DNA of 64,000 nt from Hermatobates lingyangjiaoensis (Eukaryota > Arthropoda > Insecta > Hemiptera > Hermatobatidae): the NCBI GenBank assembly GCA_026182355.1, contig JAPFBL010000227.1, forward strand, positions 233,501 through 297,500, written 5' to 3'. The notes beneath the pieces were generated by a model. The model had not been told where the DNA came from. It ran no database searches and saw only the letters and a list, made by a program, of their open reading frames with translations. Positions 5,824 to 58,353 of the stretch are shown one piece after another (within the stretch, counting starts at the first letter, position 1; each line of letters begins with the position of its first letter). The position numbers were made by a program, and so were the translations under genes.

Positions 5824-5954
5824 TAGTACAGAGCCAATCTCACCTTCCACCCATAGACGAACTTCGTTTCGAGATATTGATCATAGTAAGTGTTTTCGTT
5901 CTATATATGTTGTTTTTGTTCAGATATATATATATATACATATATATATATATT

Positions 5955-6107
5955 AGTATATTTTTGGAGCAGAGCTTCATTTAGACATGTTTTATTAAAG
6001 AGTATGCCGATCTTCATTTTCGTTCGTTTTTTATTTAACTTCTCCAGTTTTCTAAACTTGGTTTTTAACCCTTTAGGTAAACTAAACACTAACTCACTAA
6101 TCCTCAT
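5955..6107 (-). pseudogene. Inverted copy of the retroelement N-terminal fragment
   Basis: On the minus strand, from 6107, it reads MRISELVFSLPKGLKTKFRK, LEKLNKKRTKMKIGI and LFNKTCLNEALLQKYTN, then the frame enters (TA)n as IYIY. It is ~90% identical to the plus-strand fragment at 6476 but goes 12 residues further. The end point YTN is shared with fragments at 7290 and 12555. Confidence 0.55.
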
Positions 6108-6118
6108 ATTGTAAATCC

Positions 6119-6145
6119 CTGAAGATGGTCAAAGTGACCGAAACG
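6119..6145 (+). ncRNA. Hammerhead-like structured motif, copy 1
   Basis: Box CTGAAGA (6119..6125), one base T, stem arms GGTC (6127..6130) and GACC (6136..6139) with loop AAAGT, then GAAACG. The order equals the hammerhead core C3-A9, stem II, G12-A14, with a single extra base between A9 and the first G-C pair. A cleavage triplet and stem I were not identified, so catalysis is unproven. Confidence 0.5.
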
Positions 6146-6380
6146 TTGGAATAATTTAATGTATAGTTTGTTTGTTTTTAGTTAGGTTTAGTGTGTATTA
6201 TTCGATTACTACTATGGAACTCAAGAATATGGAACCTCCAATATTTGTAACCTCCTTGTTGTCTTGATGTTTTCTATTCATTATGTTAGCTATGTAATAA
6301 TTCGCGACTAGATTGTTTGTAATAATTATTGTTAGTGTTTTTCCTTAAGTTAAGTTGTTTAATCGTCATATTGTAAATCC

Positions 6381-6407
6381 CTGAAGATGGTTAAAGTGAC
6401 CGAAACG
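6381..6407 (+). ncRNA. Hammerhead-like structured motif, copy 2
   Basis: This matches copy 1 except that the stem arm GGTC is GGTT. The last pair against GACC thus becomes U-G, which keeps the helix. It lies in the second of two direct repeats, 70 bp upstream of an ATG that opens a coding fragment. Confidence 0.5.
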
Positions 6408-6475
6408 TTGGAATAATCTAATGCATAGTTTGTTTGTTTTTAGTTAGGTTTAGAGTGTATTATTCGATTACTACT

Positions 6476-6610
6476 ATGGAACTCAAGAATAAATCTTTCG
6501 GAGAGTTAGTGTTTAGTTTACCTGAAGGGTTAAAAACCAAGTTTAGAAAACTGGAGAAATTAAATAAAAAACGAACGAAAATGAAGATCGGCATATTCTT
6601 TAATAAAACA
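6476..6610 (+). pseudogene. N-terminal coding fragment of a retroelement ORF
   Basis: From ATG at 6476 it reads MELKNKSFGELVFSLPEGLK, then TKFRKLEKLNKKRTKMKIGI, then FFNKT, before collapsing into TATATA. It is basic (many Lys/Arg), as expected of a nucleic-acid-binding N-terminus. The same protein is encoded in reverse at 5955..6107, where it extends to LFNKTCLNEALLQKYTN. A recognisably related fragment occurs at 12.5-12.9 kb. The rest of the ORF is missing. Confidence 0.55.
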
Positions 6611-8040: not shown

Positions 8041-8892
8041 AAAGAAGCAAAATATTGTTTATCACTTCAAAAAAAAAAGTGGCTATAAAAGTGAAAATTA
8101 TTCTACACTTTATATGAACAGCACTCTTTGTCAGTCTGTCTGCACTATCTCATACAATGCTTATTTGATTACCTAATCCTATTATGATTACTGTTGAAAA
8201 CCAAATAACAATAAATGATCATACAATGTGGTCATAATCAACAAGCATATATTATGTATGTTGCATTTATACATAGTACATAGAATAAAAAAATCTTCAT
8301 CCTTCACTTTGTGACTAATGAAATCCGATAATTTGATTTGAGTTAATACTATTATAAAGACAGAAGTATGAAACTTTCCAAATTAAGAACAATGAAACGT
8401 TACAACGAAAGTTTGTCTAAGAAACCACTATAAAAAGATAATATCATTGTAAACGGAGCTAATAACAACCCTTCGAAACGATTAAGAGCATCCCCTTACC
8501 GACTGAGGAGTCAACTATTCATAATACTCTTTTAGATAACTAACCTAGAAAAGTCGAGACTATGATACAACCAGTAGCATCGTATGTATGGAATCAGTAC
8601 ATACAGTACTCTAATGTATGTATAGAAATAACAAGTTGCAATAAAAGGTTTTATTGATATAGTTTACCATATTGATGACTCTGACATTAAGAACGTACTA
8701 AGGTTATGAAAAATGCATACAGAAAGAAGTTGTTCTTAATGATTGTATTTTTTTTTTAATTGTACATATATATTATATTCAAGAAAAACTTTTTTCAAAG
8801 TTTAGGAGGTAATATACATAACTAAAAGATAGATATAATCATATAAACAAATACTTTATTCTCTTATTTTGGTATACAGGAGCATTTTCCTC

Positions 8893-8920
8893 CTGACGTT
8901 GAGTGGTAAACACTTGAAAC
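8893..8920 (+). ncRNA. Solitary hammerhead-like motif
   Basis: Box CTGACGT (8893..8899), extra T, stem arms GAGTG and CACTT with loop GTAAA, then GAAAC at 8916..8920 and ATGTTGAG. Core position A9 has become T. It is not next to a (TA)n tract, so it may be an older copy. Confidence 0.4.
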
Positions 8921-9084
8921 ATGTTGAGTATTACAAATATTATATTTACGGGAGAAATAACTTATCTGCTTTTTAGGAATATTGAAAAGCTGATGAAAAC
9001 AACAAGTTTCAGTCAATAAAGGTCAATAAAATATGCAATTAATCAAAATCGGATATATATATATATGTTGTATTAAAATCAATG

Positions 9085-9965
9085 CCCTTGATTACACTTA
9101 CCTTTTTTATACTTACAGGGATCAATTTATAGTTAAATTAAATTGGCTAATTAACTAATGAAGTTTTTCAAACTTCTTAGCTAATTATCTGTCTTCAAGT
9201 TTGAGTTGGTGGATAATTTCAGCAAAACTGCTAATCAAACTCACTATTTTATTGGATGTTGTACTTAAACTAAATTTAACAATTATATTAAATTAAAACT
9301 AAAATGTTGAAATGTCGACATCCTCTCATCCTAACTTGAATTTTATCTTTCTACCATCCATCTTATAATCTTTTGAAAACTTAATGTAACCAGGTTTGAA
9401 CTGTAGTGTATGTTTTTTCCTCCATGTTAAATTTACATAGCTGCATAGTAGATAAAATATCAGTAACATTCAGAAGATGGTTGTAGGCAACCAAAACATG
9501 TCAACATGTTAGTTTTAATTGATTAGTTAAATTTAGTTTAGGTACAACATCCAAAAAATATTGATCTTGAACAGCAGTTTTGCTGAAGTTATTCACCAAC
9601 TCAACCTTGAAAGCATAAAATTCTAGGAGGTTTGAAAAACTTCATAAAAAAGAGGTACGTGGAACCAAGGGCATTCAGTTTAATACAACATGTATAAAGG
9701 ATCTGATTCCTATTTTAATATATATTTGTAAATTTTTGCAGCAGTCTCTCCTTGACACACACATCATCAAAAATGACACCAAACTTAGCTGATACCTGTT
9801 TCTTAACAAGTTTCTCAATTGTCTAAATAACACTCTCGTTATGTCGCCCATACTGTAAAGTAATCTCCTATAGTCGACATTTTTCGAATGATCAACATTC
9901 ATCATCAGGACCTTAATAAGCTCTTGGTAAATTTTCTGGTTTATAATATATATACTTTGCATGGT
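9085..9965 (+). mobile_element. Longer Penelope-like candidate: inverted 5' part plus decayed coding region
   Basis: 9085..9320 is largely the inverse of 9480..9690 (shared GTTGTAC, TGCTGAAAT-like and GAAGTTTTTCAAAC segments). The forward arm carries the structured motif at 9471. Downstream the plus strand can be read as QFNTTCIKDLIPILIYICKF, then LQQSLLDTHIIKNDTKLS, a stop and YLFLNKFLNCLNNTLVMSPI, with several stops up to 9960. This copy therefore runs past the point (LIYI, encoded by AATATATATTTG) at which the short copies end. That suggests the short copies are truncated at a naturally TA-rich stretch of the ORF. Confidence 0.45.
9471..9497 (+). ncRNA. Hammerhead-like motif within the 9.1-9.96 kb element
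   Basis: Box CAGAAGA (consensus CTGAAGA), extra T, stem GGTTG paired with CAACC over loop TAGG, then AAAAC. The GAAA box has lost its G, so this copy would be inactive as a hammerhead. The five-pair stem remains intact. Confidence 0.45.
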
Positions 9966-10445: not shown

Positions 10446-10745
10446 TATATATTCTGAGGTAAAATGGATAAACAAACAAAAGTCTCCACACAAATGAAGT
10501 TTTATTCGAAAGCAACAACGCGTTTCAAACACTTTGTGTTTGAAATAATAAAATTCAATTAAGAGAATTCAAGACTTAATTGAATTTTATTATTTCACTC
10601 TACTTTTGTAACTAATTAGATATAATTTGTATTATAGTGTCTTACTGATGATGAACACAAAGTGTTCGAAACGCGTTGTTGCTGTTGAATAAAACTTCAT
10701 TTGTGTGAAAACTTTTGTATATTTATCCATATTACCTCAGAATGA
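10446..10745. repeat. Inverted pair of structured units, GAACAC subfamily
   Basis: The left (minus) and right (plus) copies share ~90 bp: GAAACGCGTTGTTGCT, ATAAAACTTCATTTGTGTG, TTTATCCAT and TACCTCAGAAT. The right stem is GAACAC/GTGTTC with loop AAA after CTGATGA and T (10645..10673). The left stem is AAACAC/GTGTTT. The G-C to A-T change on both sides keeps pairing, a compensatory change. The centre is unrelated sequence that includes an AATTAAGTCTTGAATT-like partial palindrome. Confidence 0.8.
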
Positions 10746-12524: not shown

Positions 12525-12550
<26 letters not shown>

Positions 12551-12915
12551 TTGTAAAATTTGGGAGCAGTCCTTCATTCAAGAATATTTCATTGAACAAC
12601 TGACCGTGTTTCACTGATGTCATTTTCTTCACCAGTTTTTTGAGGTTTCTGAATATGTTCTTCTTTCCTTCATCCAAACGTTGGGAACCGACATATTTCG
12701 ACTGGCTTCCAATCATCTTTAGGGTAATTAAAAATTTTTTTAATTTTTCCCTGAAGATGACTGGAAGTCAGTCGAAACATGTCGGTTCCCCCTTATTTAA
12801 TATTCTCCAACGTTTGGATGAAGGAAAGAATAACGTATTCAAAACCACTAAAAACTGGTGAAGAAAATGACATCATTGAAATACGGTCAGTTATTCAATG
12901 AATATATATATATCC
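12525..12915. mobile_element. Inverted pair of retroelement 5' ends with structured motif and coding fragment
   Basis: Two opposite copies meet near 12735. The minus copy has box CTAAAGA, T, stem GATTG/CAGTC, GAAAT. It continues through QRLDEGKKNIFRNLKKLVKK to LFNEIFLNEGLLPNFTN and ends at (TA)n, 12551. The plus copy has CTGAAGA, T, stem GACTG/CAGTC over loop GAAGT, GAAAC (12751..12778), and the related frame QRLDEGKNNVFKTTKNW then a stop, KKMTSLKYGQLFNE, ending in (TA)n at 12902. One stem pair differs (T-G versus C-G) yet pairing is kept. The motif is here part of the same reading frame region (KMTGSQSKHVGS), about 30 bp upstream of the conserved basic segment. Confidence 0.6.
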
Positions 12916-15902: not shown

Positions 15903-16097
15903 TATAAAGATCACGTAAACACGTGAAACAACAATCATATCGATAACCACAATAAGAAATGGGAAAACAAGACTAAGAACTTTCGCAACACTCTTTCAAC
16001 TATATATATCAGTTGGGTTTATTGACTCTGACGAAGACCGCTTGTTACGGTTGAAAGATCTTAGTCTTGTTTTCCATTTCTTATTGTTGGTTTGATC

Positions 16098-16136
<39 letters not shown>

Positions 16137-16405
16137 ATGACAAACAGTTTGTTTCATTTCATATTGTGGTTTGTATATACTAGATAAATGATCCACATAA
16201 ACACGTGGAATAATAATCAATGATCAACACAGATAAAAATGGGAAAACAACTTAAGAACTGTTCAACCGTCACAAGCGTCTCGTCAGAGTCAAATCACTC
16301 TGGGTCATTGGTTTTTTGACTCTGACGAAGACCGCTTGTTACGGTTGAGAGATCTTAGTCTTGTTTTCCCATTTTTTATTGGTTTGAACATATATATATA
16401 TATAT
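15900..16405. repeat. Cluster of four structured units, CTGACGA subfamily, alternating orientation
   Basis: Reverse (15905..15990), forward (16010..16105), reverse (16185..16300) and forward (16312..16390), separated by TATATA. The forward copy at 16028 has box CTGACGA, A, stem GACCG/CGGTT over loop CTTGTTA, then GAAAG. The unit starts CAGTTGGGTTTTTGACT and ends in GATCATTGA or in the longer AACAACAATCA / TTTCACGTGTTTACGTG palindromic end. Confidence 0.85.
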
Positions 16406-23739: not shown

Positions 23740-23940
23740 AAAGAGACTAACACTCACATTGTCCATCATTTAGGATTTATGGTTGTCTTAAGGAGAAAAG
23801 AAAAAGAAGAAGAAACACAGGTGTGACGTGAAAGTGCCCACTCTTATTCTTTTTCTTTTCCTCACTCCTGAAGACGGCAAGGAAGCCGAAATGATCGAGA
23901 ATCGTGAGGTTAGTCTCTCTTTTTGTGTTTTCTAGTTGTA
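23740..23940. repeat. Inverted unit pair, GGC/GCC stem
   Basis: The forward copy has CTGAAGA (23868..23874), C, stem GGC/GCC over AAGGAA, GAAAT and then GATCGAGAATCGTGAGGTTAG, followed by TCTCTTTTTGTGTTTTC. The reverse partner at 23750..23790 (AACACAAAAAAAGAGACTAA) matches the tail. Confidence 0.7.
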
Positions 23941-41167: not shown

Positions 41168-41395
41168 ATAGTAACAAGATTTCATGTAAATACGTGAGAT
41201 AAAAATCAATGATCAAACCAAAATAAGAAATGAGAAAAAAAGAGACTAAGATCTTTCAACCACAACAAGCGGTCTTCGTCAGAGTCAAAAACCCAAGGTT
41301 GTGTTGCGTTTTTGACTCTGATGAAGACTGCTTGTTGTGGTTGAAAGATCGTAGTCTTTTTTTCCCATTTCATATCGTGGTTTGATTATTTATAT
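41168..41395. repeat. Inverted pair of structured units, CTGACGA subfamily
   Basis: The reverse copy 41180..41292 and forward copy 41305..41395 each hold the GACTCTGA.GAAGAC box, CTTGTTGTGGTTGAAAGATC and the CCCATTTCATAT tail. The pair is mirror-like about CCAAGGTTGTGTTGC. No (TA)n lies beside it. Confidence 0.8.
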
Positions 41396-42784: not shown

Positions 42785-43135
42785 ATATAATGATGAAACC
42801 ACAATAAGAAATGGGAAACAAGACTAAGATCTTTCAACCGTAACAAGCGGTCTTTGTCAGAGTCAAAAACCAAACTCATGACAAAAACCCAATTTATCAG
42901 TTGGGTTCTTGACTCTGACGAAGACCGTTTGTTACGGTTGAAAGATCTTAGTCTTGTTTTCCCATTTCTTATTGCGGTTTGATCATTGATTGTTGTTTCA
43001 CTTGGTTATATGAAATCTTTATATATATATAAATCAGTTGGGTTTTTGACTCTGACGAAGACCGCTTGTTGCCGTTGAAAGATCTTAGTCTTGTTTTCCC
43101 ATTTTCTTATTGTTGTTTGATCATTGATATATATT
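42785..43135. repeat. Three structured units, CTGACGA subfamily (reverse, forward, forward)
   Basis: Reverse 42789..42872; forward 42900..43017 with the complete right end (TTGATCATTGATTGTTGTTT, CACTTGGTTATATGAAATCT, TT then TATATA); forward 43033..43130. Each carries CTGACGAAGACCG, CTTGTTRCSGTTGAAAGATC and TTAGTCTTGTTTTCCCATTT. These near-identical copies are the youngest in the window. Confidence 0.88.
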
Positions 43136-43516: not shown

Positions 43517-43560
43517 GAAATATCAGTGGTTGAGAAACTATATCAATATATATATAAATA

Positions 43561-43820
43561 CAAAACTAAAGTTTATCGGGACTCGGTCAGTTCTTCAGGT
43601 TCAAATTAAACTCTCATTGCCAACGTTTTGGTATTTATTTAAAACCTTTTTCATAGACCTACAAAAACAGAGGAAATATAAGAAATATTACAATGATTTA
43701 AAAATCAAACATACATTTTTATAGGCCTATGAAAAAGGTTTTAAATAAAGACCGAAACGTTGGCAATGAGAGTTTAATTTGAACCTGAAGAACTGGCTGA
43801 GTCCCGATAAACTTTAGTTT
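43561..43820. repeat. Inverted pair, GACCGAAACGTTGGCAATGAG subfamily
   Basis: 43561..43665 and 43715..43820 are inverse: AACTAAAGTTTATCGGGACT, CGGTCAGTTCTTCAGGTTCA, AATTAAACTCTCATTGCCAA, CGTT. The forward copy has GGTTTTAAATAAAGACCGAA, ACGTTGGC: a GGT...ACC stem then GAAAC. The CTGAAGA box is replaced by CTATGAA. Relatives at 51775..52065 and a fragment at 46195..46235. Confidence 0.8.
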
Positions 43821-43864
43821 TTTTTCTATTCCACAGTTGATACTCTTATTAAAATTTATAGATA

Positions 43865-43990
43865 TATATAAAAAGATTTCACATAAACACGTGAAATAGT
43901 TGGGTTTTTGACTCTGACGAAGATCGCTTGTTACGGTTGAAAGATCTTAGTCTTGTTTTCCCATTTCTTATTGTGGTTTTATCATTGATA
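43865..43990. repeat. Structured unit, CTGACGA subfamily, recombinant copy
   Basis: The distal end AAAGATTTCACATAAACACG lies directly before TAGTTGGGTTTTTGACTCTG, ACGAAGATCGCTTGTTACGG, TTGAAAGATC. In other copies that end lies on the far side, so this copy is a junction between two units. The stem base GACCG has changed to GATCG. Confidence 0.8.
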
Positions 43991-44055: not shown

Positions 44056-44425
44056 TTACAATGTGATATTGTCACCTTCAAAATAGTTCCCTTCGGAAGC
44101 CACCCAGCGCTGGAGACGGTCCTTCCAATCATTGTAGCATTGCTGGAACTCGGATTCTGGAATGGCCTTCAGCTGGTCGGTTGCAGCAGTTTGTATATTT
44201 TGTAGTGTCCCGAAATGAGTTCCCTTGAGGTGATTTTTCAATCTCGGGAAGTGGAAAAAGTCACAAGGACTCAAGTCTGGTGAATAAGGAGGCTGAGGAG
44301 CAACAGGAATGTTTTTACTGGCCAAAAACTCGTTTATTGAAATGGCAGTGTGACAGGGCGCGTTGTTGTGATGCAACACCCACTTGTCTTTGATGTTTGG
44401 CCGCACACGAAGGACTCTTTTTCGA
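44056..44425 (-). pseudogene. Mariner transposase, C-terminal catalytic part
   Basis: In a frame different from the N-terminal segment, this encodes RVLRVRPNIKDKWVLHHNNA, then PCHTA and a C-terminal half ending WVASEGNYFEGDNITL. The second catalytic Asp of the D,D34D triad is changed to Asn (HHNNAPCH where relatives have HHDNAPCH). The third Asp is kept in YSPDLSPCDFF, exactly 34 residues further on. The junction with the N-terminal part has a short duplicated GATCGAA sequence, consistent with repair of an internal gap. Loss of the first Asp, the frame change and the Asp-to-Asn change each predict inactivity. Confidence 0.92.
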
Positions 44426-44725
44426 TCATTCGATCATTCTGACTGTCAAGCGTCGATCTGAACGCACAAGGTTCCGTACTCTGTTGACATTTTCATCGGT
44501 GTTTGCACTTGAAGGCCTTCCGCTTCGTGGTTCATCTTCAATCGACTCTCTTCCTTCTGAAAATTCCTTAAACCACCGAAAAGCCTGTGCCCTTGATAAA
44601 ACACGTTCTCCATAGGCCTCCTGAAGTTTTTCAAAAGTTTCGGTTGCATTATGTCCAAGTCTGAAGCAAAATTTGATTGCACACCGCTGCTCAACTTTGA
44701 GGTCACTCATTTTTAAAACGCTCAA
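44426..44725 (-). pseudogene. Mariner transposase, N-terminal part (HTH DNA-binding domain)
   Basis: About 99 residues from an ATG at 44725. They carry the mariner N-terminal paired-type helix-turn-helix region: CAIKFCFRLGHNATETFEKL, then QAFRWFKEFSEGRESIEDEP, then RSGRPSSANTDENVNRVRNL. This part binds the terminal inverted repeats. It ends at RMIE followed by TGA at the edge of an internal deletion. The deletion removes the linker and the first catalytic Asp, so no active transposase can be made. Confidence 0.9.
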
Positions 44726-44926
44726 GAAAAAACCATTTCACGAAAACCAACGCTACGGACAAACAAATGACTGTGGCGAGTTCAGATTCACACTGGAGGC
44801 GCATCACACGTGCACCTGACGCTACTCAAGGCCAGATTGAGTAGGCCAGATTCGATCTGGCAACGTCTCCAGCGTTGCCAGATCGAAAGCGACGTTGCCA
44901 GTCTCACTACTTTATTTACACACCTC

Positions 44927-51067: not shown

Positions 51068-51305
51068 AAACAAAAAGATTTTAATATGAAACTAACAACG
51101 AGTTTCGAACACTTAGTGCTCTTATTCTGGTTAACATCTAAAAAATATATATAAATGTGAGCTTTAAGGCCTTTAGATAATCAAGTAATTTACTATGATG
51201 ATCTTAAAAGTCACATATATGTATATTTTTTAGATATTATCCTGAAGAAGAACACTAAGTGTTCGAAACACATTGTTAGTTTCATATCGAACTTTTTGTT
51301 TTGTA
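51068..51305. repeat. Inverted pair, GAACAC subfamily
   Basis: Forward: CTGAAGA (51242..51248), A, stem GAACAC/GTGTTC over TAA, GAAACA, then CATTGTTAGTTTCATA. Reverse (51070..51128): the same stem as GAGCAC/GTGTTC, a G-U pair in place of A-U, with box CAGAATA. The arms CAAAAAG/TTTTTGTTTTG and AGATATTATCCTGAAG are shared. Confidence 0.8.
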
Positions 51306-53754: not shown

Positions 53755-53960
53755 AGTTAGACAAAACACGACACAGAAAAAAGAAAAAATATACACTTAC
53801 TGAATTCAATTCTTCAAAATGTTGTTCGTTCTATCTTCTATTCTTTTCCTGATGACGAACAACAGTTCAAAATATTGAATTTAGTAAGTGTGTATCTTTT
53901 TTTCTGTGTCGTGTTTAGAGTAATTTATAGTTTTACAGTCCGTGTGGACCGTTTCTTCAA
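53755..53960. repeat. Inverted pair, GAAC/GTTC subfamily, with GTCC..GGAC palindrome
   Basis: Arms of ~50 bp (53762 AACACGACACAGAAAAAAGA and 53895 TCTTTTTTTCTGTGTCGTGT). Forward copy: CTGATGA (53849..53855), C, stem GAAC/GTTC over AACA, AAAAT, then ATTGAATTTAGTAAGTGTG, a donor-like site. Right of it AGTCCGTGTGGACCGTTTC (53937) repeats the second palindrome with altered bases. Confidence 0.8.
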
Positions 53961-57829: not shown

Positions 57830-57949
57830 TATATAGTTTTGTTGATTTGCATATCCTCATTGTGATTTATATTAATATTTTTTTTAATTTTTTTCATTTG
57901 AATGATGTCTCCCCCCATATTGAGTGATGTGAAATCCTTTGTGTTGCAG

Positions 57950-58078
57950 TCCTCAGCGTGGAAGGCCCCGTGCTAAACATCAGCCGAGTTAGTCGTCTGC
58001 ACATGGGTCCTTATTTGTGCATCGCCAGCAACGGAGTCCCACCTACTGTCAGCAAACGCATCATGCTCATCGTGCATT
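57950..58078 (+). CDS. Internal exon of a DIP/lachesin-like immunoglobulin-superfamily adhesion gene
   Basis: The exon follows a gtgttgcag acceptor and ends at a TT|GTACGT donor. It is 129 bp, with 2 bases completing a split codon, 42 whole codons and one trailing base, so both flanking introns are phase 1 and skipping would keep the frame. It encodes LSVEGPVLNISRV, then SRLHMGPYLCIASNGVPP, then TVSKRIMLIVH: the E, F and G strands of a C2/I-type Ig domain with the F-strand Tyr-x-Cys. The pattern LNISRVSRLHMG.YLCIASNGVPP.VSKRIMLIVHF is known from arthropod DIP/lachesin-like proteins, which are GPI- or membrane-linked Ig proteins binding Dpr partners in neuronal recognition. It probably belongs to the second Ig domain. 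A Pro sits where relatives usually have Ala in GAYLC. The first Ig Cys and the rest of the protein lie on exons not in the window. DIP and lachesin paralogues cannot be told apart from this piece. Confidence 0.9.
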
Positions 58079-58353
58079 GTACGTTTTATATCTTTAAAAT
58101 ATTTTCCATAAATTTTTTTTGTATATTTTTGCTGTTTTTTTTTTTTTTTTTTTTGATATATAATGATGTGGATATTTATGTTTGAAACACTTCGGTTTAT
58201 AAAGTAACAACAGTAGCTGCAATGAAGATAACACATTGAGGTCATTCTCAAAAGAAGAAAAAAATTTATTTATGTCTAACAATCACCGTAATATCTTACG
58301 GATAGGCTGTAACAACTACTCATATCTTTAAATTATTACTTACATAATGAATG

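What the first reader, a model, noticed from the sequence alone, without database searches (positions are those of the whole stretch)
6119..6145. Dispersed RNA-like motif with the order of the hammerhead core plus one extra base
Seen: many units share CTGANGA, one variable base, a stem-loop, then GAAA. Examples: 6119 (GGTC/GACC), 12751 (GACTG/CAGTC), 10645 and 51242 (GAACAC/GTGTTC), 23868 (GGC/GCC), 16028 (GACCG/CGGTT), 53849 (GAAC/GTTC), 8893 (GAGTG/CACTT). Known: hammerhead ribozymes have conserved C3-U4-G5-A6-N7-G8-A9, stem II (first pair usually G-C), then G12-A13-A14. Here the stem is displaced by one nucleotide in all copies. Inference: a variant or derelict hammerhead carried by a retroelement. 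The cleavage triplet, stem I and stem III were not identified, so activity is uncertain.
Basis: partly seen in the sequence, partly recalled or inferred. Interest (0 to 1): 0.82.

Follow-up and report, generated by a model that had tools for sequence, protein, structure and literature searches.

The report
Minimal hammerhead ribozymes of Penelope-like retroelements
The repeated motif has the build of the small self-cleaving RNA carried by Penelope-like jumping genes, a known kind, here with one extra base at a fixed place; copies are very abundant in this animal's genome.

Summary
Copies follow one plan: stem I (3-4 bp), CUGANGA, one extra base, stem II, GAA, a short palindrome A...U (stem III), one base not G, predicted cut, stem I again. 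The full descriptor finds 16 sites in the window, 15 with exactly one extra base; shuffles average 0.65. In 200 kb sampled elsewhere in this 910-Mb genome, 30 of 32 hits, and all 24 with palindromic stem III, have one extra base; the reversed control gives 2 hits, neither palindromic. The carrier, shown for the 6119 family, is a Penelope-like element: an ORF start follows, a GIY-YIG-like end precedes, copies end beside (AT)n with or without a ~37-nt tail, and often lie head to head. The carrier of the commonest family is not shown. Minimal type I hammerheads in such elements, thought to act as dimers, are already published. The extra base need not be decay: 122 otherwise complete type I hammerheads in viral contigs carry it, U in 110. 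Verdict: new members of a known kind. Self-cleavage was not testable here.

The parts
6116..6150 (+). Hammerhead copy: stem I UCC 6116-6118, CUGAAGA 6119-6125, extra U 6126, stem II GGUCA/UGACC 6127-6139, GAA 6140-6142, ACGU palindrome (stem III) 6143-6146, H17 = U 6147, predicted cut 6147/6148, stem I GGA 6148-6150
   Evidence: sequence
6378..6412 (+). second hammerhead copy, same plan, in the direct repeat of the pseudo-LTR
6098..6229 (+). first direct copy of the pseudo-LTR stretch (96% to 6360-6491)
   Evidence: family D6
6360..6491 (+). second direct copy of the pseudo-LTR stretch
   Evidence: family D6
6476..6610 (+). start of the element's ORF (MELKNKSFGELVFSLPEGLKTKFRKLEKLNKKRTKMKIGIFFNKT), ending at an (AT)n run: the short 3' end
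   Evidence: sequence; relatives
5979..6095 (-). head-to-head inverted copy of the ORF-start region (arm of I2); the reading 5901-6128 minus runs on through the longer tail (..CLNEALLQKYTN) to an (AT)n run
8890..8928 (+). hammerhead copy with A9 changed to U: stem I CUC/GAG, stem II GAGUG/CACUU, stem III ACAUGU
9872..9912 (-). hammerhead copy: stem I GGUC/GACU, stem II GAAUG/CAUUC, stem III AAAUGU (not fully palindromic)
10645..10671 (+). CUGAUGA-U-GAACAC/GUGUUC-GAAA; ACGCGU follows; stem I not formed in this copy (UUC/GAA in the relatives in L321)
12687..12725 (-). hammerhead copy (CUAAAGA core): stem I ACC/GGU, stem II GAUUGG/CCAGUC, stem III AUAUGU (one G-U)
12525..12767 (-). reading downstream of the 12722 copy whose last part matches the 6119 family's ORF start (24 of 43 residues identical) and ends at (AT)n
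12749..12785 (+). hammerhead copy: CUGAAGA-U-GACUG../..CAGUC, ACAUGU, stem I only CC/GG
16024..16066 (+). hammerhead copy of the commonest family: stem I GACU/AGUC, extra A, stem II GACCG/CGGUU, stem III AGAUCU
16318..16360 (+). same family, GAA changed to GAG
23865..23899 (+). hammerhead copy: stem I CUC/GAG, extra C, stem II GGC/GCC, stem III AUGAU (middle base unpaired)
41244..41286 (-). GACU/AGUC family; head to head with a decayed copy at 41318 (+)
42822..42864 (-). GACU/AGUC family, core CUGACAA; head to head with 42915
42911..42953 (+). GACU/AGUC family, perfect core, stem II 6 bp
43048..43090 (+). GACU/AGUC family
43910..43952 (+). GACU/AGUC family
43716..43829 (+). stretch with stem II, GAAA, ACGU and GCC/GGC but with CTATGAAAAA where CUGANGA should be; inverted copy at 43554-43667; 63 bases match (94%) the region behind an RT and GIY-YIG frame in L300
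50347..50380 (+). hammerhead copy (CUCAUGA core): stem I CUUC/GAAG, stem III AUAU
51242..51268 (+). CUGAAGA-A-GAACAC/GUGUUC-GAAA copy; stems I and III decayed
53846..53879 (+). hammerhead copy (GAA changed to AAA): stem I UUC/GAA, extra C, stem II GAAC/GUUC, stem III AUAU

Best explanation
The motif is the minimal type I hammerhead ribozyme of Penelope-like retroelements, placed in their pseudo-LTRs. It differs from the textbook core by one unpaired base between A9 and stem II: U in many families, A in the commonest one, C in a few. Shown here: the core, the stems, the predicted cleavage position, covariation between families, and the element context for the 6119 family. Inferred: in a transcript, a lone copy has almost no stem III, so it folds poorly; two copies pair through the palindrome (ACGU, ACAUGU, AGAUCU, ACGCGU) and form a double hammerhead that cuts after base 17. 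Tandem pseudo-LTRs, or binding by the element's own protein as reported for Poseidon of Anolis, would switch cleavage on. Cleavage would trim tandem read-through transcripts to element units. The copies seen in the window are mostly short 5'-truncated insertions.
For: Full descriptor: 16 sites against a shuffle mean of 0.65, 15 of 16 with one extra base. 20 arbitrary 10-kb stretches: 32 hits, 30 with one extra base; 19 of 19 core-perfect and 24 of 24 palindromic hits have one extra base; reversed control 2 hits, none core-perfect or palindromic. 3690 genome matches to a one-extra-base pattern against 1 for the reversed pattern. Of 60 places fetched in listing order, 52 have a palindromic stem III; of these 38 pair at least 3 bp of stem I, against 13.7% with flanks swapped between copies of different stem II. 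Carrier of the 6119 family: ORF start downstream with relatives at E 5.5e-10 and 1.3e-7; a GIY-YIG-like end upstream whose relatives (best 1.8e-27) match Pfam GIY-YIG, 7 of 8 aligned members at E up to 1, best 2.6e-5; two 3' ends differing by ~37 nt beside (AT)n, as the published Penelope tail (PMC11167929, PMC3846280). The 12.7-kb copies lead to a related ORF start. Complete type I hammerheads with the same extra base occur in viral contigs, 122 distinct.
Against: No cleavage was tested. Rfam gives no hammerhead match in the window at E 5, nor for the 6119 copy alone at E 10, where a textbook viral hammerhead is found at E 0.00075, though below its cut-off (23 of 34 bits). Stem I is short, and 14 of 52 copies have fewer than 3 pairs; sliding the partner by 3 also gave 19 of 52, and by -1 or +2 gave 8 sites each in the window. 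17 of the 38 stem I pairings are one sequence (UUG/CAA), so copies are not independent. A cofold of two 6119 copies prefers another dimer (-21.7) to the double hammerhead (-14.7 kcal/mol), which itself beats two monomers (-11.2). The reverse transcriptase of the 6119 family was not seen; its GIY-YIG stretch alone has no Pfam hit and a longer frame of L014 only a sub-threshold one (E 0.068). The carriers of the other families, the commonest included, were not identified.
Confidence: 0.86

Rival explanations
1. The fold is kept in the element RNA for a job other than cleavage, for example as a landing site for the element's protein or in template use; the ribozyme itself is dead because of the extra base.
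For: The extra base departs from the textbook core; stem I is short; the stretch at 43.55-43.83 kb and its relative in L300 have lost CUGANGA but keep stem II and the ACGU palindrome. PMC11167929 reports that ribozyme-dead mutants do not change insertion in vitro and that its ribozyme shows no cleavage without protein.
Against: The bases that matter for catalysis are kept across families with different stems, with 19 core-perfect hits of 32 in 200 kb (the descriptor allowed at most one mismatch, so this is biased upwards). 122 otherwise complete viral hammerheads have the same extra base.
Confidence: 0.11
2. The motif is part of a palindromic DNA element (inverted-repeat MITE) and has no RNA role.
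For: Many copies lie in long inverted repeats (I2, I8, I9, I22). In the first 100 places, 12 of 12 same-motif pairs under 3 kb are minus then plus; in those, 9 of 10 (one pair is in both lists).
Against: The fold is complete within each arm, away from the palindrome centre; copies with no inverted partner nearby in the descriptor list (8893, 23868, 53849) and direct tandems (6119 and 6381) exist; head-to-head pseudo-LTRs are described for Penelope elements (PMC3846280, passages); the stems covary between families.
Confidence: 0.03

Closest known systems
Minimal type I hammerheads in pseudo-LTRs of Penelope-like elements (Cervera and de la Pena 2014; Lunse, Weinberg and Breaker 2017; known to me only through citing papers, as neither is held)
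   Same: Carrier, position, short or missing helix III, dispersed and tandem copies, action as dimers proposed (passages in PMC7761336, PMC6155905, PMC6466107, PMC7229834)
   Different: I could not read whether those alignments carry the extra base; here nearly every copy has it
Poseidon (PAc) hammerhead of Anolis carolinensis, PMC11167929 (main text read; figures not held)
   Same: Hammerhead at the pseudo-LTR/ORF junction; C3 and G8 lie before an ATG that opens at stem II, which fits CUGANG-AUG-G, i.e. an extra U (my inference)
   Different: There the ORF starts inside the ribozyme; here the ORF of the 6119 family starts 95 nt after C3 (6381 to 6476). PAc needs its protein for cleavage; untested here
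Repeat-associated hammerheads with palindromic stem III, PMC3088659 (section 8 and passages)
   Same: Palindromic stem III and loop, dimer proposed, weak stems III called very common; core insertions such as A6a and U13a described
   Different: The parts I saw name no insertion after A9
Type I hammerheads in viral contigs (L001, L002, L016 and others)
   Same: Same core, and 122 distinct ones have the same one extra base, U in 110
   Different: They have true stems I and III; the animal copies have only a short palindrome for stem III
Rfam RF00163 Hammerhead_1
   Same: Order and identity of core bases
   Different: No match reported for the window copies; stem II starts one base further from A9

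Membership tests
Hammerhead ribozyme, type I | C3 U4 G5 A6 N7 G8 A9 and G12 A13 A14 | tested here: met
Hammerhead ribozyme, type I | stem II, with no more than one or two inserted bases between CUGANGA and the stem (the limit stated for known alignments in PMC10085705) | tested here: met
   one extra base in 15 of 16 and 30 of 32; a first pair of G with C or U was required by the descriptor
Textbook hammerhead core (strict) | stem II begins directly after A9 | tested here: not met
   one base intervenes
Hammerhead ribozyme, type I | A15.1 and U16.1, base 17 not G | tested here: met
   U16.1 and H17 required by the descriptor, A15.1 counted as core; frequency against shuffles and reversed sequence
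Hammerhead ribozyme, type I | stem I pairs the flank before C3 with the flank after the cut | tested here: met
   38 of 52 at least 3 bp against 13.7% with swapped flanks; 8 of the 60 copies had no palindromic stem III and were not scored
Canonical monomeric hammerhead | stem III of several pairs within the monomer | tested here: not met
   only a 4-6 nt palindrome, which can pair between two copies (52 of 60); published minimal Penelope hammerheads lack helix III too (PMC7761336, PMC6155905, passages)
Hammerhead ribozyme, type I | self-cleavage at the site | not testable with these tools
   needs transcription in vitro
Penelope-like element | reverse transcriptase followed by GIY-YIG endonuclease | tested here: inconclusive
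   L300 has RVT_1 (2.2e-8) and GIY-YIG (3.6e-6) in one frame and, 290 nt behind its stop, a stretch like window 43.7 kb; for the 6119 family only a GIY-YIG-like end was seen
Penelope-like element | pseudo-LTRs that include the start of the ORF, direct and inverted, with an optional 30-40 bp tail | tested here: met
   6119 family; compared with passages of PMC3846280 and the text of PMC11167929
Penelope-like element | insertion next to AT-rich DNA | tested here: met
   8 of 9 distinct loci among L006-L015 (L007 and L008 overlap) end at one of the two 3' ends beside an AT run; L006 breaks off earlier

The most novel reading that the evidence does not exclude
Hammerheads with one base (mostly U) between A9 and stem II are a distinct, stable subclass shared by Penelope-like elements and phages. 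The extra base works as a built-in brake: lone copies stay uncut, and cleavage waits for a longer stem II, a second copy or the element's protein, so that a transcript is cut only when tandem or bound. In viral contigs the extra base goes with a longer stem II (95 of 122 at least 5 bp, against 75 of 181 without it; relatedness not corrected for).
Probability: 0.25. Interest if true: 0.65.

Novelty: new member of a known kind. Interest (0 to 1): 0.42.

Why it matters
The fold occurs at roughly one copy per 8 kb in one animal genome (24 palindromic hits in 200 kb; about 1e5 in 910 Mb if the sample is typical), in several families whose stems differ yet stay paired. That makes one genome a natural mutation library for asking what a minimal, dimer-dependent hammerhead tolerates, and why Penelope-like elements keep it. 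It also warns that standard searches miss it: Rfam at its cut-offs finds neither these copies nor the eight viral hammerheads I tried, and the core should also be searched with one extra base.

Tried and rejected
Octopus as source: an early guess in my notebook from simple repeats and a transposase-like reading; not tested, dropped.

Rfam as judge: no hit at cut-off; 34 matches at E 5, nearly all microRNA families, none hammerhead. Not taken as decisive, since eight viral hammerheads (four textbook: L136, L139, L148, L158; four with the extra base: L016, L040, L131, L132) also give no hammerhead match at cut-off, and L139 reaches 23 of 34 bits. It remains a point against that the 6119 copy is not listed at E 10 where L139 is.

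Pfam on the short N-terminal readings gave nothing useful. Profile search of solved structures: nothing relevant. Cofolding: inconclusive, and that script stopped with an error after the first target structure.

The two hits without the extra base and one of the three (L003) show no such fold by eye.

First pass over 60 genome copies missed 31 minus-strand ones through my own coordinate slip; rerun complete.

Not done: genome-wide counts for zero and two extra bases, because the search machine did not answer; the 200-kb sample stands in for them. No covariance model was built.

Papers not held: PMC4209133, msab225, msu232, PMC5785218, PMC5850863. I do not claim that the extra base is undescribed; searches were made, and PMC10085705 implies that one-base insertions are known.

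Full report
WHAT WAS CHECKED. The window is AT-rich (26-33% GC per 4 kb), with no ORF of 150 aa, in a 909.9-Mb assembly of 1629 contigs. Of the eight named examples six have a perfect core; 53849 has lost G12 and 8893 has A9 changed to T.

THE MISSING PARTS. In the 6119 copy UCC before CUGAAGA pairs with GGA, which follows GAA-ACGU-U; in the commonest family GACU pairs with AGUC, which follows GAA-AGAUCU-U. A descriptor with stem I of at least 3 bp, CUGANGA, 0-3 extra bases, stem II of at least 3 bp starting with G, GAAA, U16.1, a base other than G at 17, and the second strand of stem I directly behind it, G-U pairs and one core mismatch allowed, finds 16 sites: 15 with one extra base, 1 with none. 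200 dinucleotide shuffles give a mean of 0.65 and a maximum of 4. Palindromy of stem III beyond A15.1 and U16.1 was not required; 14 of 16 are palindromic (G-U allowed; one has an unpaired middle base); with a perfect core 8, against 0 in all shuffles. Sliding the stem I partner by -3, -2, +1 or +3 leaves 2, 1, 1 and 1 sites; by -1 or +2 it leaves 8 each, none palindromic.

GENOME-WIDE. The 27-mer of the 6119 copy has 602 matches with up to 3 mismatches, its reversed control none. The looser pattern CTGANGANGGN{4,12}CCGAAAC has 3690 matches against 1 in the reversed control. I fetched 60 of the 100 places listed, in listing order. The extra base is U in 59 and C in 1. Stem II continues beyond the two pairs fixed by the pattern in 58 of 60, with clearly different stems (GGTG/CACC, GGTC/GACC, GGTT/AACC, GGAC/GTCC, GGGT/ACCC). 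52 of 60 have a 4- or 6-nt palindrome from A15.1 to U16.1 followed by a base other than G (ACATGT 36, ACGT 12, ACCGGT 3, ACGTGT 1). At the place fixed by that palindrome, stem I has at least 3 pairs in 38 of 52; with flanks swapped between copies of different stem II it is 13.7% of 18,448 trials. Slides of -2, -1, 1, 2 and 3 give 0, 1, 0, 0 and 19; the 19 is a result against perfect register, perhaps from the A/T-rich flank of one family. There are 13 stem I strings, 8 if only the first three pairs are compared (UUG/CAA 17 copies, UGC 6, ACU/AGU 5, and others); some use G-U pairs.

AN UNSELECTED SAMPLE. 20 stretches of 10 kb at round coordinates give 32 descriptor hits with 0-4 extra bases allowed: 30 with one, 1 with none, 1 with three. 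All 19 with a perfect core and all 24 with a palindromic stem III have exactly one extra base. Reversed sequences give 2 hits, none perfect or palindromic. 13 of 20 stretches hold a hit; by my count 18 of the 32 belong to the GACU/AGUC family. The extra base is A in 20, U in 8 and C in 2, so it differs by family. Scaling 24 per 200 kb gives about 1e5 copies, a rough figure.

THE CARRIER. Copies of the 6119 family (L006-L015) run through the motif to an ATG 95 nt after C3 in the window, then MELKNKSFGELVFSLPEELKTKFRKLEKLNKKRTKMKIGILFNKT, and stop there or after a further ~37 nt (..CLNEGLLPKYTN), beside an AT run, in 8 of 9 distinct loci. That matches the optional tail of Penelope-like elements, which PMC11167929 explains by two start sites of reverse transcription within the ORF and PMC3846280 describes as a 31-bp extension. 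Two database proteins share and continue this N-terminus (E 5.5e-10 and 1.3e-7). In the window, the reading behind the 12722 copy ends in a related peptide (24 of 43 identical). Upstream of the motif, L010 and L014 have a GIY-YIG-like stretch, and L006 and L009 a partial or decayed one. Its relatives (7 proteins, best 1.8e-27) align with invariant Y, C, C, YIG, R and H positions; 7 of 8 members match Pfam GIY-YIG at E up to 1, best 2.6e-5, although the L010 stretch itself does not. Another locus, L300, has a 378-aa frame with RVT_1 (2.2e-8) and GIY-YIG (3.6e-6); 290 nt behind its stop lies a stretch 94% identical over 63 bases to window 43718-43780. Copies form direct tandems (6098-6229 and 6360-6491) and head-to-head pairs. 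In the first 100 places, all 12 same-motif pairs closer than 3 kb are minus then plus, 9 of 10. PMC3846280 calls head-to-head the arrangement most often observed for inverted repeats of Penelope elements. The carriers of the other families were not identified; they may be non-autonomous.

IS THE EXTRA BASE DAMAGE? Probably not. A scan of viral contigs with an extra base returned 3 loci, two of which (L001, L002) are complete type I hammerheads: stem III of 5 and 8 bp, GUC site, stem I of 5 bp, and one extra U. Inside the loci returned, 307 distinct full hammerheads were found: 185 without and 122 with one extra base (U in 110), none with two or three; reversed control none. Because the scans were seeded with both forms, this shows that the form exists in number, not how common it is. 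It goes with a longer stem II (95 of 122 at least 5 bp, against 75 of 181, a slightly stricter rescan with 303). [quoted passage not shown]

HOW IT LIKELY WORKS. Shown: fold, predicted site and, for one family, carrier. Inferred: with stem III reduced to a palindrome, cleavage needs two copies or a helper. Dimer action is the published view for such elements (PMC7761336, PMC6466107, passages), and PMC11167929 reports that the Anolis Poseidon hammerhead cuts only with its protein present, with C3G and G8C abolishing and the double change partly restoring activity. Its ORF is said to begin at stem II with C3 and G8 before the ATG; the simplest sequence that fits is CUGANG-AUG-G, i.e. the same extra U. 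That is my inference; the figure is not held.

WHAT IT IS NOT. A DNA-only palindrome is disfavoured by solo and direct copies and by pairing within each arm. A fossil is true of many single copies: of the 16 window sites 7 have a core mismatch, and at 43.55-43.83 kb both inverted copies, like L300, read CTATGAAAAA where CUGANGA should be; the two stretches of this kind at 51.7-52.1 kb are decayed further.

VERDICT. New members of a known kind, well supported by structure and, for one family, by context; catalysis untested. The extra base, present in nearly every copy sampled here and recurring in viral hammerheads, is the part worth an experiment.

Noticed in passing
window 43554-43829; L300 from 1428: A Penelope-like lineage whose hammerhead keeps stem II and the ACGU palindrome but reads CTATGAAAAA in place of CUGANGA in three of five stretches looked at; in the window copies a CUGAAGA block follows about 20 nt on.
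   Followed up: partly
window 9984, 17705, 53849: By eye, in these copies the motif is followed closely by a splice-donor-like stretch (GTAAGTGTG or near it); PMC3846280 mentions an intron within a Penelope ORF.
   Followed up: no
G000, pairs: Same-family copies under 3 kb apart are almost always head to head (12 of 12 and 9 of 10 among the places listed), which would fit priming on both target strands.
   Followed up: partly
window 44056-44737, minus strand: Frames that look by eye like a decayed mariner-type transposase; no family search was run.
   Followed up: no
window 57928-58185, plus strand: A frame that looks by eye like an immunoglobulin-domain exon; not searched.
   Followed up: no
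L132 2806-2875 and 3609-3678: Two Pistol ribozymes (69 and 60 bits) in the same viral contig stretch as a hammerhead with the extra base.
   Followed up: no
L136, L139, L148, L158: Structurally complete viral type I hammerheads that Rfam 15 does not list at its cut-off; L139 scores 23 of 34 bits.
   Followed up: partly
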